Assembly: GCF_003555545.1 (NCBI RefSeq)
Contig: NZ_CP032157.1
Span: forward strand, 6,948,546 to 7,012,545
Direction of reading: 5' to 3'
Origin: Paraflavitalea soli
Lineage (GTDB): Bacteria > Bacteroidota > Bacteroidia > Chitinophagales > Chitinophagaceae
Length of the DNA: 64,000 nucleotides
Under the pieces are notes generated by a model that was not told the origin of the DNA, searched no databases, and saw nothing but the letters and a program-made list of their open reading frames with translations. Position 1 is the first letter of the stretch, and every line of letters begins with the position of its first letter. Below are positions 21,611 through 62,491 of this stretch, one piece after another. The translations under genes were made by a program, and so were the position numbers.

Positions 21611-21649
21611 ATTAAGGTGGGTCGCCTTTCAAAGGCGGCTCACCTTAAT
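21611..21649 (+). repeat. Palindromic repeat R2 (REP-like)
   Basis: The standard core lies between outer arms ATTAAGGTG and CACCTTAAT, which pair perfectly over 9 bp. The copy is 15 bp after the second GH30 stop codon. Confidence 0.9.
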
Positions 21650-21693: not shown

Positions 21694-21846
21694 GTATCAA
21701 AAGTGTATTTGCCCCTATAGGGGCTAACGCTTTGTAGCAACAGGTATCAAAAGTGTATTGTGCCCCTATAGGGGCTAACGCTTTGTAGCAACACGTATCA
21801 AAAGTGTATTCTGCCCCTTTAGGGGCTACAGCCTTGTAGCATAAAA
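21694..21846. repeat. Three tandem 51-bp units of a double-hairpin repeat
   Basis: Three units start at 21694, 21745 and 21796, exactly 51 bp apart. Each has GTATCAAAAGTGTATT, then a GCCCC/GGGGC hairpin, then a GCTA/TAGC hairpin around CGCTTTG. The third unit is the most diverged. The array ends 15 bp before the GH5 start codon, so it lies in that gene's leader. Confidence 0.9.
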
Positions 21847-21861
21847 TCGTTAATAATAATT

Positions 21862-28384: not shown

Positions 28385-28617
28385 GTATGGATGGTTTATT
28401 GGTTACTTAGCATAAATAACTTCTACCGGCTGTTTCAGAAGCCATAATCAAAAGCCTGCGTAATACGGATAAAAAGGAGAGTAAGGTTGCTATCTGGTGG
28501 AGTTGCGATGGCACACTATCCTCGTGCCTCGCTGTATTCTGTAGTCGAATATACAAATTCTTCGTCGCCCGGTTTCTATATTTTAGTAAACGGTGTCCGG
28601 CACGATCCGGCTTCATC

Positions 28618-28886
28618 AGGCTTTGTCCTCAATGCTACCTCGATAGATTCGAACATCCTCCTCTTTGGGTCCTCTTTGCTTCCCCGGAGCCCGAGGAGGC
28701 AAAGAGGAGGCATTGAGGAGGATCCGGGGAGGCAAAGAGAAGAAAGGGTGAAAAATGTGTTATTCGTCCCTGAACATATGCCGTTCATCCTGAGTGTTTC
28801 CCTTCCTCGTCCCTACCCGCCAGGTGTTTTGGAGGAGAAAAAGCTGTTCGTCCCAAGACATATGTCGTTCGTCCCAAGTGTTGGAC
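28618..28886. repeat. Complex inverted and direct repeats in the 28385-29087 gap
   Basis: This 700-bp gap has no supported gene. From about 28618 to 28750 purine- and pyrimidine-rich words pair with each other: CTCTTTGCTTCCCCGG with CCGGGGAGGCAAAGAG (one mispair), and CCTCAATGC with GCATTGAGG. From 28764 to 28886 two related units of ~37 bp repeat TTCGTCCC and an ACATATG centre. Read-through ORFs here show no protein character. Confidence 0.6.
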
Positions 28887-29087
28887 AAGCCCAACCCATT
28901 TTTGAACAACAGGAGTGCGGGCCGCTGTAAATTTGCTGTATCAATCTGCCATTGCCTGGGAGATTTCGCTTGGGAAAGCAGGAAAAGCGAACCTGCTAAC
29001 CCTCTCCCAACAGCAGTGGTAAAAAGTAGGAAAGTCGTCTGTAGTTCTTTGACATGATCTAATAAAAGCACCCATTGATAAGCACCT

Positions 29088-36324: not shown

Positions 36325-36365
36325 GATCAGGGTGGGTCGCCTTCCAAAGGCGGCTCACCCTGGTC
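36325..36365 (+). repeat. Palindromic repeat R5 (REP-like)
   Basis: Outer arms GATCAGGGTG and CACCCTGGTC pair over 10 bp with one G-T pair; the standard core is inside. It lies 45 bp before the start chosen for the next gene. Confidence 0.88.
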
Positions 36366-44057: not shown

Positions 44058-44107
44058 CCGTTTCCAAATTGTCAATGTCTGCTTGTGGTTGATATGACTG
44101 GAAACGG
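44058..44107. promoter_or_regulatory. Inverted repeat CCGTTTCCA/TGGAAACGG
   Basis: Nine-bp perfect arms at 44058-44066 and 44099-44107 are separated by 32 bp and followed by TTGTTTTT. It could be a long-loop terminator for the plus strand or a two-site operator. The surrounding gap has no supported gene. Confidence 0.4.
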
Positions 44108-44208
44108 TTGTTTTTCCACACATTTTTAATCTGAATTTTAAAAATAGGCGGAATACCAGAAATCCCTTTGCACTATAATATACAAAGTATTCGATATATC
44201 TACAAAAG

Positions 44209-44263
44209 TTATAGAGCTATTATAGAGCTGTTATAGAGCACTTATAGAGCTCTTATAGAGGCC
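44209..44263. repeat. Five tandem 11-bp iteron-like repeats (TTATAGAGCNN)
   Basis: TTATAGAGC followed by two variable bases occurs five times in a row: TA, TG, AC, TC, and a last copy with GCC. The period of 11 bp is close to one helical turn, so all copies face the same side of DNA. It lies about 340 bp upstream of the S9 peptidase gene within the largest gene-free gap. Confidence 0.85.
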
Positions 44264-44598
44264 ATGGTAGTAGTATTCTTCTGGGATATCTCTGGGACTA
44301 CTATAGGGAGCTTTACAGGTAAGCCATAGAACACCCACAAACCAAAACAGTGATAGATGTAGATAGGTTGCACCATGGGCAACCGCTTCACACAGTTCTT
44401 TTGTCAGGTGGTCTTCCTGAATACACGGGTTGTCAGGCAGGGTTTCGCCGAAGGCGCCTTCCGCAAATCCCGCCTCATAGACAATGGCAGACAATGATTT
44501 CTGCGCATTTTATATGATCCAGGCGGATATGCCGAACTTTTTTATCTTACCTACTCTTCCTTTGGCGTATTTTAGCCCCCATTAAACCCACGCTCATT

Positions 44599-50483: not shown

Positions 50484-50520
50484 TTCAGTTTATTTTGTAC
50501 CTCAATGTTGTCAGAGTTGA

Positions 50521-50643
50521 CCCCGCCTGAGCGGGGCTGAGCCTGTCGAAGCCGCCTCAAGGGTGGGTCGCCCTATAAGGGCGGCTCACCCTGGTCTGAA
50601 GTTGCCTGTCTAAGTCCGTTGTCAGGCTGAGCCTGTCGAAGCC
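50521..50643. repeat. Two TGAGCCTGTCGAAG repeats flanking palindromic repeat R8
   Basis: The copies at 50521-50552 and 50623-50643 share CTGAGCCTGTCGAAGCC. The first includes a CCCCGC/GCGGGG palindrome. Between them, R8 lies at 50560-50592 with outer arms AGGGTG/CACCCT around the standard core. Confidence 0.8.
50560..50592 (+). repeat. Palindromic repeat R8 (REP-like)
   Basis: Standard core in plus orientation; the outer stem is AGGGTG/CACCCT (6 bp). Confidence 0.88.
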
Positions 50644-50683
50644 TTCTTCTTCAGTTTCCGTATGACAACTTAATTTATAGCCG

Positions 50684-57269: not shown

Positions 57270-60194
57270 ATGGAATACAAATTCAGCCATATTGAGAAGA
57301 AATGGCAACAGACCTGGAAAGAGACCAATGTTTACAAGGTGAGCAATGACAGCAGCCGGCCCAAATACTATGTGCTGGATATGTTTCCTTATCCCAGCGG
57401 CGCCGGCCTTCACGTAGGCCATCCCCTGGGCTATATAGCCAGCGATATCTTTGCCCGGTTCAAAAGGCTCAAGGGCTTTAATGTGCTTCACCCCATGGGA
57501 TACGATGCATTTGGCCTCCCGGCGGAACAATACGCCATTGACCATGGCATCCACCCCGCTGTTTCTACCGACGACAATATCAAAAATTTCCGTCAGCAAC
57601 TCGATAATATCGGCTTTTGTTACGATTGGGACCGCGAGATAAAGACCTCCGACCCCCATTACTACAAATGGACCCAATGGATCTTCCTCCAGCTTTTTCA
57701 CAGCTGGTTCAACCGCAAAACAAAAAAGGCCGAGCCCATTGACAAGTTGATCAAGCTGTTTGAAAAAGAAGGCAATGCCAGCCATCCCTGTCCCGGCGAT
57801 TCATCCATCCGCTTTACTGCTCCTTTGTGGATCAGCTTTGAAGAACACCAGCAGATGGATATCCTGATGCAGTACCGCCTGGCTTATTGCGGTATTGGTG
57901 AGGTGAACTGGTGCGAGGCCCTCGGCACCGTACTGGCCAATGACGAAGTGATCAATGGGGTGAGTGAGCGTGGCGGATTTCCCGTGGTCAAGAAAAAGCT
58001 CCGTCAATGGTACCTCCGCATCACCGAGTATGCCGATCGCCTCCTGGAAGGTCTTGAGACGGTGGAGTTCAGCGATGCTATGAAGGAAATGCAAAGCAAC
58101 TGGATCGGCAAAAGCTATGGCGCCGAGATCAGTTTTGCATTCAAATCTACAGGCCCGCAGCTCGCAGCTCAAAGCTCGCAGCTTACTGTCTACACTACCC
58201 GTCCCGATACCATCTTCGGCGTCGACTTCATGGTGATTGCCCCCGAGCATGAATTGATTGACCAGATCACTACCCCTGGGCAAAAACAGGCCGTAGAGGA
58301 CTATCTTACTTATGTAAAGAGCCGCAGTGAGCGTGAGCGCATGGCCGAGAAGAAGATCTCCGGTGTATTCACCGGCGCCTATGTGCTCAATCCATTTGAT
58401 GGCCGCGAAATACCTGTATGGATATCAGAATATGTATTGGCAGGATATGGTACCGGCGCCATCATGGCCGTACCATGTGGTGATGAGCGTGATCATAAGT
58501 TTGCCCGGCATTTCAATATTCCCATTACCAATATCATCGGCAGCTATTACAATGGCGAAGAGGCCAACCCCACCAAGGATGCCATACTGGAAAACTCCGG
58601 TTTCCTCAATGGCCTGGTGATGCGTGCAGCCATGGAAGTAGCCATTACCAAACTTGAAGAGTTGGGAATAGGTATCCGCAAGGTCAATTACAAGATGCGT
58701 GATGCCGCCTTCAGCCGCCAGCGGTACTGGGGCGAACCATTCCCCATTGCCTGGAAGGAGGGAGTGGCTTATGCTTTACCCGAAAGTGAATTGCCCGTTA
58801 CATTACCTCAGATAGATGAGATAAAGCCCGGTAAAGAAGGAGAGGGGCCCCTCAGCAACCTGCCTGAGTGGATCAATTCCTCACCCATCGGCGGACAAAG
58901 AGAAAGCTCCACCATGCCCGGTTATGCCGGCAGCAGCTGGTACTTCCTCCGCTATATGGACCCCCATAATGACAACGCCTTCTGCGACCGCAAGGCCAGT
59001 GATTACTGGGGCCAGGTAGATCTTTACATCGGCGGTACCGAACATGCTGTTGGTCACCTCCTCTACAGCCGCATGTGGACCAAGGCCCTCTACGATCTTG
59101 GCCATATCGGATTTGATGAGCCCTTTAAGAAACTGGTGAACCAGGGTATGATACAGGGTAGTAGCAGGTTTGTGTATAGATTCGTATGGCAGACGATGCA
59201 TAAAGTTGACGTTGACCCATCTCAGCTTCCTTCTTTCTTTATTTCCAAAGGAATAGTTGATAGTATTGAGAAAGGTGACGAAGATGCTATCCTTAAAGTC
59301 AAAGATACTGTTCAAGCGCGCCTTAAAGAGCTTGGCTTAAGTGTTTCATTTGTCGGAATTGGAGTAGAAGTAGCACCGTTACATGTAGATGTAAATATTG
59401 TAGATGGTGTTGAGCTGGATACAGCAGCTTTTAAGAAATGGCGCCATGAATATGCTAACGCTGAGTTCATTTTAGAAGAGGGGAAGTACATCTGTGGTTC
59501 CGAAGTCGAGAAGATGAGCAAAAGCAAGTTCAATACTGTTAATCCGGATATACTTGTTGAACGATATGGGTCAGACACTTTCCGCATGTACGAAATGTTC
59601 CTTGGTCCTGTGGGAGATAGCAAGCCTTGGGATACCAAAGGTATTGAGGGCGTGCACCGCTTCCTGAAAAAACTGTGGCGGTTGTTTTATGATGATGTGA
59701 AGGGACAGGTATGGAATACCAATGCGCCAACAGATGCAGAGTGGAAGGTGTTGCACAAAGCCATCAAGCGGGCGGAAGAAGATACCGAACGTTTTTCTTT
59801 CAACACCACCGTCAGTACGTTCATGATCTGTGTGAATGACCTGTCTGAGTTGAAGTGTACCAAGAAAGACATCCTCCAGCCCTTACTCATATTGCTTACT
59901 CCGTATGCACCCCATGTGTGCGAAGAGCTTTGGCATTTGTTGGGTAATACAACTACCATCCTGGATGCTACCTATCCTACCTTCGAACCAAAGTACCTGG
60001 TGGAAAGCAACAAGGAATACCCCATTTCTGTAAATGGTAAACTCCGTACCACCATCAATATTGCCCTGGATGCACCGCAGGAAGAAGTGGAAAAGCTGGT
60101 CCTTTCCAATGATGTGATCCAAAAGTGGATGGAAGGCAAGCCCCACAAAAAGGTCATCTATGTAAAAGGCAAGATGGTGAATGTAGTGATATAA
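57270..60194 (+). CDS. leuS: Leucyl-tRNA synthetase
   Basis: This class I synthetase has 974 residues; Bacteroidetes LeuRS is normally about 920-945. The HIGH-type motif is HVGH (47-50) and the KMSKS motif is EKMSKS (near 748). The editing domain includes TTRPDTIFG. Residues 295-306 (GPQLAAQSSQLT) are encoded by an AGCTCGC heptamer array in frame. The segment from about 631 to 775 is AT-richer than its surroundings and carries an extra ~45 residues before APLHVDVNIV compared with the LeuRS I remember from the phylum. Function is likely kept: catalytic motifs are intact and the gene must be essential unless a second copy exists. Confidence 0.95.
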   Translation: MEYKFSHIEKKWQQTWKETNVYKVSNDSSRPKYYVLDMFPYPSGAGLHVGHPLGYIASDIFARFKRLKGFNVLHPMGYDAFGLPAEQYAIDHGIHPAVSTDDNIKNFRQQLDNIGFCYDWDREIKTSDPHYYKWTQWIFLQLFHSWFNRKTKKAEPIDKLIKLFEKEGNASHPCPGDSSIRFTAPLWISFEEHQQMDILMQYRLAYCGIGEVNWCEALGTVLANDEVINGVSERGGFPVVKKKLRQWYLRITEYADRLLEGLETVEFSDAMKEMQSNWIGKSYGAEISFAFKSTGPQLAAQSSQLTVYTTRPDTIFGVDFMVIAPEHELIDQITTPGQKQAVEDYLTYVKSRSERERMAEKKISGVFTGAYVLNPFDGREIPVWISEYVLAGYGTGAIMAVPCGDERDHKFARHFNIPITNIIGSYYNGEEANPTKDAILENSGFLNGLVMRAAMEVAITKLEELGIGIRKVNYKMRDAAFSRQRYWGEPFPIAWKEGVAYALPESELPVTLPQIDEIKPGKEGEGPLSNLPEWINSSPIGGQRESSTMPGYAGSSWYFLRYMDPHNDNAFCDRKASDYWGQVDLYIGGTEHAVGHLLYSRMWTKALYDLGHIGFDEPFKKLVNQGMIQGSSRFVYRFVWQTMHKVDVDPSQLPSFFISKGIVDSIEKGDEDAILKVKDTVQARLKELGLSVSFVGIGVEVAPLHVDVNIVDGVELDTAAFKKWRHEYANAEFILEEGKYICGSEVEKMSKSKFNTVNPDILVERYGSDTFRMYEMFLGPVGDSKPWDTKGIEGVHRFLKKLWRLFYDDVKGQVWNTNAPTDAEWKVLHKAIKRAEEDTERFSFNTTVSTFMICVNDLSELKCTKKDILQPLLILLTPYAPHVCEELWHLLGNTTTILDATYPTFEPKYLVESNKEYPISVNGKLRTTINIALDAPQEEVEKLVLSNDVIQKWMEGKPHKKVIYVKGKMVNVVI
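58152..58186. repeat. In-frame 7-bp tandem repeat inside leuS
   Basis: Five heptamers: GGCCCGC, AGCTCGC, AGCTCAA, AGCTCGC and AGCTTAC. The same words form intergenic arrays at 16334 and 42847. The in-frame translation replaces a loop just before the editing-domain motif TTRPDT. Confidence 0.85.
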
Positions 60195-60195
60195 T

Positions 60196-60241
60196 CATTT
60201 TAAGGTGGGTCGCCCTCTCAGGGGCGGCTCACCTTAAAATG
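60196..60241 (+). repeat. Palindromic repeat R9 with 12-bp perfect outer arms
   Basis: CATTTTAAGGTG and CACCTTAAAATG pair perfectly around the core, 1 bp after the leuS stop codon. Confidence 0.95.
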
Positions 60242-60295
60242 GTTGAAAGTGGACAAGTGTGATGTTTCACGACATCCATATACACAGGGAATACG

Positions 60296-60346
60296 TAAAT
60301 GCAGACGGTGGGTCGCCCTTTAAGGGCGGCTCACCGTCTGCATTTA
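60296..60346 (+). repeat. Palindromic repeat R10 with 15-bp perfect outer arms, upstream of RAYT
   Basis: TAAATGCAGACGGTG and CACCGTCTGCATTTA pair perfectly, the longest outer stem in the family. It ends 23 bp before the RAYT start codon. Confidence 0.95.
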
Positions 60347-60369
60347 AAGAACAATTCAAACAATCCAAT

Positions 60370-61029
60370 ATGCCTGTTTCCGAACAGTACAAAGCTCCCT
60401 TTTACCCAGGTAATTCTTACCATATAACCTTTAGAAGTATTGATGGTTTAATATTATTTCATGACCTTGAAAATCATGACTTCTTCCTTCAAAGATTTAC
60501 TTACTTCTTACAGCCTGTTTTAAGCTGTCTTGCTTATTGTTTATTGAAGAATCATGCACATTTCATCGTGCATATAAACGATCGTAAAAACATATTGGAT
60601 TCTTTGGGCTTCATTGTAGAAGAAAAGAAGACTATGGCGATGAAAAAATTTATTAATGATCCTGAAAATGAAGGTTTAATAGATGAGTTGGTAGAAAGGC
60701 AGATAAATAACTTTATGATATCTTATGTAAATGCACTTAACAAGGCTCTTTCCCGGAAAGGCAGTTTATTTCAATCTCCGTTCAGGAGAGTACAAATTGA
60801 GGGAGATGCTCATTTGCAGCAAGCAATCATATATACAAACGCTAATGCCCAAAAGCATGGGATTGTCCGGGATTTTAAGGAACATAGGTATACTTCATAT
60901 CATGATGTAGTAGCGGATGTATCATCAGTTGTAGATATTGCTGCTATAGGGCGGTTTTTTAGGGGCAAGGAGCACTTTATAAAAGAACATGAAATACATG
61001 TTCAACGATATTATAAAGGAGAGGATTGA
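60370..61029 (+). CDS. REP-associated tyrosine transposase (RAYT, Y1_Tnp/IS200-like)
   Basis: I start at the ATG at 60370 (MPVSEQYKAPFYPGN, 219 residues); the in-frame start at 60259 would translate repeat R10. The HUH motif is HAH (His62, His64) and the catalytic Tyr is Tyr155 in IIYTNANAQKHG, the Y1 transposase pattern; FQSPFRRVQIEGDAHLQQA precedes it. RAYTs are domesticated IS200/IS605-type enzymes that bind and nick REP hairpins and are thought to spread them. Base composition is AT-richer than the neighbours. Repeats R10 and R11 flank the gene in inverted orientation, and R9, R12, R13 and R14 are within 1.5 kb. Confidence 0.92.
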   Translation: MPVSEQYKAPFYPGNSYHITFRSIDGLILFHDLENHDFFLQRFTYFLQPVLSCLAYCLLKNHAHFIVHINDRKNILDSLGFIVEEKKTMAMKKFINDPENEGLIDELVERQINNFMISYVNALNKALSRKGSLFQSPFRRVQIEGDAHLQQAIIYTNANAQKHGIVRDFKEHRYTSYHDVVADVSSVVDIAAIGRFFRGKEHFIKEHEIHVQRYYKGED

Positions 61030-61044
61030 GTTAAGATATTATTC

Positions 61045-61091
61045 AGGGTCAAAGGTGAGCCGCCCTTGGAGGGCGACCCACCTTTGACCCT
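61045..61091 (-). repeat. Palindromic repeat R11 with 13-bp perfect outer arms, inverted
   Basis: AGGGTCAAAGGTG and CACCTTTGACCCT pair perfectly. Orientation is opposite to R10 (GTGAGCCGCC first). It is 16 bp after the RAYT stop. Confidence 0.95.
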
Positions 61092-61159
61092 TTGATGCCA
61101 GCCAGGATAGAATACCAAGAGAATAATAGCGGACTTAAGCCAAATATTGTTCTCCTCAA

Positions 61160-61190
61160 AGGTGAGCCGCCCTTGGAGGGCGACCCACCT
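61160..61190 (-). repeat. Palindromic repeat R12, inverted
   Basis: The core matches R11, including the loop, but the outer stem is only AGGTG/CACCT. Confidence 0.88.
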
Positions 61191-61240
61191 CAATCCTCCA
61201 AACAAGCGCGCTATCTACCTGGAGTGTTCATCCATAACAA

Positions 61241-61288
61241 GTCAAACAGAGTGGGTCGCCTTCTAAAAGGCGGCTCACTCTGTTTGAC
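61241..61288 (+). repeat. Palindromic repeat R13 with 13-bp perfect outer arms
   Basis: GTCAAACAGAGTG and CACTCTGTTTGAC pair perfectly. This copy has AGTG rather than GGTG beside the core, changed together with CACT on the other arm. Confidence 0.93.
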
Positions 61289-62454: not shown

Positions 62455-62491
62455 AAACGGTGAGCCGCCTTTGTAAGGCGACCCACCGTTT
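62455..62491 (-). repeat. Palindromic repeat R14, inverted
   Basis: Outer arms AAACGGTG and CACCGTTT (8 bp) around a core in minus orientation, between two minus-strand genes. Confidence 0.9.

What the first reader, a model, noticed from the sequence alone, without database searches (positions are those of the whole stretch)
60196..61288. RAYT gene nested in inverted copies of its presumed REP, with one hairpin in its own leader
R10 (plus) and R11 (minus) flank the 219-aa transposase in inverted orientation, with R9, R12 and R13 just outside. R10 has the longest outer stem and ends 23 bp before the start codon, a position suited to autoregulation by the RAYT binding its own mRNA or DNA. The gene is AT-rich compared with leuS. 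This pairs the repeat family with a likely mobilising enzyme.
Basis: partly seen in the sequence, partly recalled or inferred. Interest (0 to 1): 0.6.

Follow-up and report, generated by a model that had tools for sequence, protein, structure and literature searches.

The report
Transposase-like gene with its matching hairpins
A small gene for a single-stranded-DNA cutting enzyme of the RAYT family sits between inverted copies of the short hairpin repeat it almost certainly acts on; this is a clear, well-paired example of a known kind of bacterial repeat system, in a lineage where such pairs have been little described.

Summary
A 219-aa RAYT gene (60370-61029) lies between inverted copies of the hairpin GTGGGTCGCC-N7-GGCGGCTCAC. 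R9 and R10 are upstream in plus orientation, R11 and R12 downstream in minus, R13 plus; R10 ends 23 bp before the ATG. The core occurs 156 times in the genome (reversed-pattern control 0).

The protein is a RAYT: HUH and Tyr residues are invariant in 27 homologues, and the best matches by sequence profile and by fold are E. coli TnpA-REP (4ER8).

The gene-repeat pairing holds. A 44%-identical RAYT in another genome, between different genes, is flanked by the identical core in inverted orientation; other 37-47% relatives carry GTGRGYCRCC variants. Across 27 loci RAYT identity tracks hairpin similarity (Mantel r = 0.70, 0 of 5000 permutations).

Two corrections. A REP 13-136 bp before the start codon is the norm in this family, and downstream REPs lie even closer to the stop codon, so R10's position is no specific evidence for autoregulation. 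Two congeners carry 24 and 46 exact copies without a detectable RAYT, so repeats outlive the enzyme.

About a third of own copies have locus-specific complementary outer stems, often where congeners carry terminators. How these stems arise is open.

The parts
60192..60245 (+). R9: REP hairpin, core 60205-60232, starting at the leuS stop codon; outer arms cattttaag/cttaaaatg
60296..60346 (+). R10: REP hairpin in the RAYT leader, core 60308-60334, 24-pair stem, ends 23 bp before the ATG
60370..61029 (+). RAYT gene, 219 aa, HUH motif N61-H62-A63-H64, catalytic Tyr Y155
   Evidence: NCBIfam NF047646 3e-11 but below its cut-off; profile hit 4er8; AF2 pLDDT 94.8 and Foldseek top hit 4er8; invariant residues
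61045..61091 (-). R11: inverted REP hairpin 15 bp after the RAYT stop, core 61055-61081
61156..61190 (-). R12: inverted REP, core 61162-61188; 35 nt identical to R11, including one outer arm only
61241..61288 (+). R13: REP hairpin next to the 3' end of the convergent gene, core 61251-61278, outer arms gtcaaacaga/tctgtttgac
62460..62486 (-). Further REP core, at a position where congeners have related terminator-like hairpins with the same outer stem (AAACGG...CCGTTT)

Best explanation
This is a REPtron: a Y1 (HUH) single-strand endonuclease gene of the RAYT/TnpA-REP family with its cognate REP hairpins on both sides in inverted orientation. Inferred mechanism: the RAYT recognises one strand of the REP, the one that folds into an unbroken hairpin through two G-T pairs (the other strand has two A-C mismatches), cuts and rejoins single-stranded DNA beside it with Y155, and so spreads short REPs in trans, as proposed for E. 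coli TnpA-REP. The 1.1-kb unit lies between leuS and a convergent gene in this genome only. Copies settle mainly at the 3' ends of genes, in sense orientation; there the RNA hairpin probably acts as a terminator or 3'-end stabiliser. R10 is most simply the upstream REP of the unit, not a dedicated regulatory site. Shown: identity of the protein, pairing with the repeat, copy number, orientation bias, empty site in four congeners. Inferred: cleavage, mobilisation, transcript effects.
For: Profile of 27 homologues hits only TnpArep 4er8 in the PDB (1.3e-5); the AF2 model (pLDDT 94.8) finds 4er8 first (1.3e-5), then ISDra2/IS608 transposases. HUH and Tyr invariant. Most homologous loci have REPs on both sides. 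The identical core flanks a 44%-identical RAYT between other genes in L145. RAYT-REP congruence r = 0.70. The relaxed core GTGRGYCRCC occurs in all nine genomes with a RAYT of this clade and in none of three genomes with RAYTs of other clades. 156 copies here. leuS and the next gene are neighbours, without RAYT or REP between them, in all four congeners. Strand asymmetry: core -11.3 against -8.1 kcal/mol as DNA, -23.8 against -15.4 as RNA. Sense orientation 46:19 (p = 0.001), convergent against divergent 30:7 (p = 0.0002).
Against: No activity was or can be shown here. G001 and G003 hold REPs without a detectable RAYT, and genomes with a clade RAYT can hold as few as 1-9 copies, so enzyme presence and copy number are loosely coupled. 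The protein misses Pfam Y1_Tnp and the NF047646 cut-off. H157, nearly invariant in the family, is Asn here, so lowered activity is possible. No canonical U-tract terminator is called at R9-R13.
Confidence: 0.85

Rival explanations
1. R10 is a dedicated autoregulatory site: the RAYT binds the R10 hairpin in its own leader (RNA or DNA) and limits its own expression.
For: 24-pair hairpin ending 23 bp before the ATG, z = -6.6; an upstream REP close to the start codon in 32 homologous loci, median 37 bp.
Against: The downstream REP is as close or closer (median 9 bp), so proximity follows from the unit's layout; leader spacing varies from 13 to 136 bp; no expression data.
Confidence: 0.2
2. The RAYT is a domesticated or dying enzyme in this genome and the repeats are fixed relics kept as terminators or mRNA 3' hairpins; no mobilisation occurs now.
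For: Two congeners keep many copies without a RAYT; N157 replaces a nearly invariant His; copies are biased to gene ends in sense orientation.
Against: The open frame and all key catalytic residues are intact; this genome has 3-7 times more copies than its RAYT-less relatives; R11 and R12 share a 35-nt identical stretch, suggesting recent copying.
Confidence: 0.3
3. The repeats are ordinary intrinsic terminators that look alike by convergence or DNA conversion, and the RAYT merely landed among them.
For: Long-stem copies often occupy terminator positions; congeners have unrelated terminators at some of the same sites.
Against: 156 copies with exact asymmetric arms and none in G002 or G004; the same core flanks a distant RAYT; RAYT-REP congruence.
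Confidence: 0.03

Closest known systems
TnpA-REP / RAYT subclass 2.4 of PMC6006769 (group 4 of Bertels)
   Same: Bacteroidetes among its hosts; NHxH and Y motifs; 'double foot' REPs with GTRG at the 5' end and its complement at the 3' end; REPs on both sides of the gene; some relatives here (L024, L026, L029, L037) carry a REP inside the RAYT ORF, which that paper calls unique to 2.4.
   Different: Own motif letters deviate (NHAH, FQ instead of WQ, YTNANA instead of YIxNNP); the 3' foot reads TCAC rather than CYAC; long locus-specific outer stems are not mentioned in the passages read. The subclass HMM itself was not available.
E. coli TnpA-REP and REP (PMC8266576, PDB 4ER8)
   Same: HUH/Tyr fold; strand-asymmetric REP hairpin; GTRG tetranucleotide; inverted REPs around the gene.
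   Different: 13% identity in the fold alignment; asymmetry through G-T pairs instead of an AA-GC bulge; own REP has paired feet on both sides.
REPtrons and GTAG-tagged REPs (PMC2817692, PMC3733652)
   Same: RAYT flanked by inverted REPs; REPs close to the 3' ends of ORFs.
   Different: The text of these surveys does not mention Chitinophaga; PMC3733652 names Bacteroidetes once, and only for CGTC repeats.
IS200/IS605 insertion sequences (IS608, ISDra2)
   Same: Y1 HUH transposase fold, subterminal hairpins as substrate.
   Different: No tnpB, single gene copy, flanked by dispersed REPs instead of IS ends.

Membership tests
RAYT / TnpA-REP | Y1 HUH fold with HxH and one catalytic Tyr | tested here: met
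   H62, H64, Y155 invariant in 27 sequences; Foldseek top hit 4er8; 4er8 the only PDB profile hit
RAYT / TnpA-REP | Gene flanked by at least two REPs in inverted orientation | tested here: met
   R10 (+) and R11 (-), with R9 and R12 outside
RAYT / TnpA-REP | Flanking palindrome dispersed in many copies in the genome | tested here: met
   156 exact-arm copies, control 0
RAYT / TnpA-REP | REP type co-varies with the RAYT clade | tested here: met
   Mantel r = 0.70, 0 of 5000; core found with this RAYT clade and in two congeners, not with other clades tested
RAYT / TnpA-REP | 5' GTAG/GTGG tetranucleotide at the hairpin foot | tested here: met
   Core begins GTGG in the plus orientation
RAYT / TnpA-REP | Score over the cut-off of a curated model (a practical, not a biological, criterion) | tested here: not met
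   NF047646 43 bits against a cut-off of 80; no Pfam hit. Probably a sensitivity limit: only 9 of 27 family members match Y1_Tnp at 0.01
RAYT / TnpA-REP | Cleaves and rejoins its cognate single-stranded REP | not testable with these tools
   needs biochemistry
RAYT subclass 2.4 (double-foot REPs) | REP with paired 5' and 3' feet; REP insertions inside some family ORFs | tested here: met
   GTGG...TCAC feet pair, one G-T included; hairpins inside the ORFs of L024, L026, L029, L037
RAYT subclass 2.4 (double-foot REPs) | Motifs NH[IFV]H, WQ, YIxNNP | tested here: not met
   Own sequence NHAH, FQ, YTNANA; several homologues fit better. Described as related to 2.4, not filed as a member
IS200/IS605 element | Multicopy transposase unit with IS ends, often with tnpB | tested here: not met
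   One copy in the genome; no tnpB in the 1.1-kb unit

The most novel reading that the evidence does not exclude
In this RAYT clade REPs carry locus-specific, perfectly complementary outer stems (up to 17 bp in relatives, e.g. L147) that are unrelated between copies. Insertion of the core either creates an inverted copy of the flank (fold-back copying or complementarity-guided insertion) or targets the tip of existing terminator hairpins, so that a mobile repeat builds or takes over intrinsic terminators genome-wide.
Probability: 0.25. Interest if true: 0.6.

Novelty: new member of a known kind. Interest (0 to 1): 0.42.

Why it matters
It gives a clean enzyme-repeat pair in Bacteroidota, where RAYT biology is little studied, with natural controls: a RAYT-bearing genome with 156 copies, relatives that kept 24-46 copies without the enzyme, and relatives with neither. 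The identical core beside a 44%-identical RAYT makes specificity directly testable. The terminator-like outer stems raise a concrete question about how mobile repeats reshape transcript ends.

Tried and rejected
Another resident Y1 protein as the mobiliser: the two other Y1 genes of G000 (L001, L002/L044) and those of G001-G004 have no GTGGGTCGCC hairpins beside them in the hairpin scans; G001's L041 has its own different REPs. A copy does lie about 0.9 kb from the L002 gene, but with no inverted pair. The 256-aa GTG start that reads through R10: rejected, homologues align from residue 1 of the 219-aa form. R9-R13 as canonical U-tract terminators: the simple scan did not call them. Low G+C as proof of recent transfer: weakened by the family-wide trend. 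Empty-site analysis to decide how outer stems arise: only one cleanly spanned site (window 36332, empty in G001; left arm GATCA old, right arm new) and two sites where congeners share an outer stem but differ in the core (62460; in G001 and G003 at the site of copy 9981 of L123); these point in different directions, so unresolved.

Full report
Observation. The window (G000:C1:6948546-7012545) holds 13 copies of a hairpin whose arms are GTGGGTCGCC and GGCGGCTCAC. Five surround a 219-aa ORF between leuS and a convergent gene: R9 (+), R10 (+), the gene 60370-61029, R11 (-), R12 (-), R13 (+). R10 ends 23 bp before the ATG and R11 starts 15 bp after the stop. Genome-wide, 156 copies have both arms exact and none match the reversed control pattern.

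The protein. Pfam gives nothing, and NCBIfam gives NF047646 REP_Tyr_transpos at 3e-11 but 43 bits against a cut-off of 80. A search of 296 genomes of the same family found homologues in 86, best 47% identity. In an alignment of 27, N61-H62-x-H64, Y155, N159 and H163 are invariant. Their profile hits one PDB sequence at E <= 1, E. coli TnpArep 4er8 (1.3e-5). The AF2 model (mean pLDDT 94.8) has 4er8 as its only match at E <= 0.001, followed by ISDra2 and IS608 transposases. It is a divergent RAYT with an intact catalytic set; N157 in place of a nearly invariant His is the one odd position.

Pairing of enzyme and repeat. Most homologous loci carry a hairpin on each side of the gene, inverted where the hairpin is asymmetric, and the hairpin sequence differs by RAYT clade. 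In one search the loci of minus-strand matches were not yet turned round; one search corrects this. Over 27 loci, RAYT identity and hairpin similarity correlate (r = 0.70; maximum of 5000 permutations 0.29). Caveat: I chose each locus's hairpin by proximity and repetition, and the permutation ignores shared ancestry. The strongest single case is L145, a Bacteroidota MAG: a 44%-identical RAYT between genes that I read as polA and purU has TGGGTGGGTCGCCCCCTAAGGGCGGCTCACCCA 41 bp before its ATG and the inverted core downstream. The relaxed core GTGRGYCRCC...GGYGRCYCAC occurs in all nine genomes with a RAYT of this clade (166, 18, 9, 7, 6, 5, 4, 2 and 1 copies) and not in three genomes with RAYTs of other clades.

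History. In G001-G004, leuS is followed within 11-215 bp by the same convergent gene, with no RAYT or REP between them. No RAYT of this clade is detected in these four genomes. G001 and G003 nevertheless hold 24 and 46 exact copies; G002 and G004 hold none. G001 is listed as fully complete; G003 is 93% complete in 170 contigs, so its absence is less certain. Their other Y1 proteins have no such hairpins beside them. A REP-type hairpin is shared by G000 and G003 in the same intergenic region at several sites (49271, 36332, and 9981 of L123), which fits a RAYT present in the ancestor of G000, G001 and G003 and later lost from two of them. This is inference.

The leader hairpin. R10 forms a 24-pair stem and the leader folds far better than shuffles (z = -6.6). 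But in 32 homologous loci the upstream REP lies 13-136 bp before the start (median 37) and in 33 loci the downstream REP lies closer to the stop (median 9, from the tables; a few loci are the same genome region met by two searches). The position therefore belongs to the unit's layout. Autoregulation is possible but gains no special support.

Strand asymmetry and location. The plus strand of the core folds without a break through two G-T pairs; the complement has two A-C mismatches (DNA -11.3 against -8.1, RNA -23.8 against -15.4 kcal/mol). Strand discrimination between REP and its complement is established for other TnpA-REP (PMC8266576). In 102 own copies the plus strand is co-directional with two flanking genes 46 times and against them 19 times, and copies lie between convergent genes 30 times against 7 between divergent ones. 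Genes were called mechanically as long ORFs, which limits precision.

Outer stems. Pairing beyond the core averages 4.7 bp against 2.9 with shuffled partners (maximum 3.1 in 200 shuffles). About 30 copies have outer arms of 6-13 bp that differ from copy to copy, and relatives reach 17 bp (L147). Many of the other copies lie in a longer composite repeat with CTGAGCCTGTCGAAGG. At orthologous sites congeners often carry ordinary terminators; at 62460 the outer stem AAACGG...CCGTTT is shared with G001 and G004 while the core differs. At 36332 G001 is empty and only the left arm pre-exists. R12 repeats R11 with one outer arm only. These facts do not decide between insertion into hairpin tips, inverted duplication of flanks, and later selection for longer terminators.

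Verdict. A real REPtron, a new member of a known kind, related to subclass 2.4 of PMC6006769 by its double-foot REPs and by REPs inside some relatives' ORFs, though its own motif letters deviate. Enzyme action and autoregulation remain to be tested.

Noticed in passing
window 50508-50645 and G000:C1 near 182960, 2177988, 4812014: The REP core is often part of a longer composite repeat with CTGAGCCTGTCGAAGG, in places tandem with a 63-bp period.
   Followed up: partly
window 28613-29019: A roughly 400-bp element with at least four other copies in the genome at 75-86% identity.
   Followed up: no
window 44103-44360: Another dispersed repeat, 86-90% identical to places at 1.03, 1.40, 1.91 and 2.63 Mb.
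   Followed up: no
window 21700-21850: Tandem copies of TATCAAAAGTGTATT-TGCCCCTATAGGGGCTAACGCTTTGTAGCAAC after the REP at 21617.
   Followed up: no
L041 1273-1369 and 2055-2151: G001 has a different RAYT with near-identical three-hairpin blocks (ATGCGAGGCTTGCAGCCTCGCAT ... CTTCGAGGCTGCAAGCCTCGAAG) on each side, as direct repeats.
   Followed up: no
L024, L026, L029, L037: RAYT homologues with a REP hairpin inside the open reading frame, without breaking it.
   Followed up: partly
L012-L040: In many flanking REPs each hairpin arm is itself nearly palindromic (GAGTG-AGC-CACTC, AGGTTG-C-CAACCT, GATATG-A-CATATC), so the whole element is a palindrome of palindromes.
   Followed up: no
window 61045-61091 and 61156-61190: R11 and R12 share 35 identical nt including only one of R11's two outer arms, a hint about what unit is copied.
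   Followed up: partly
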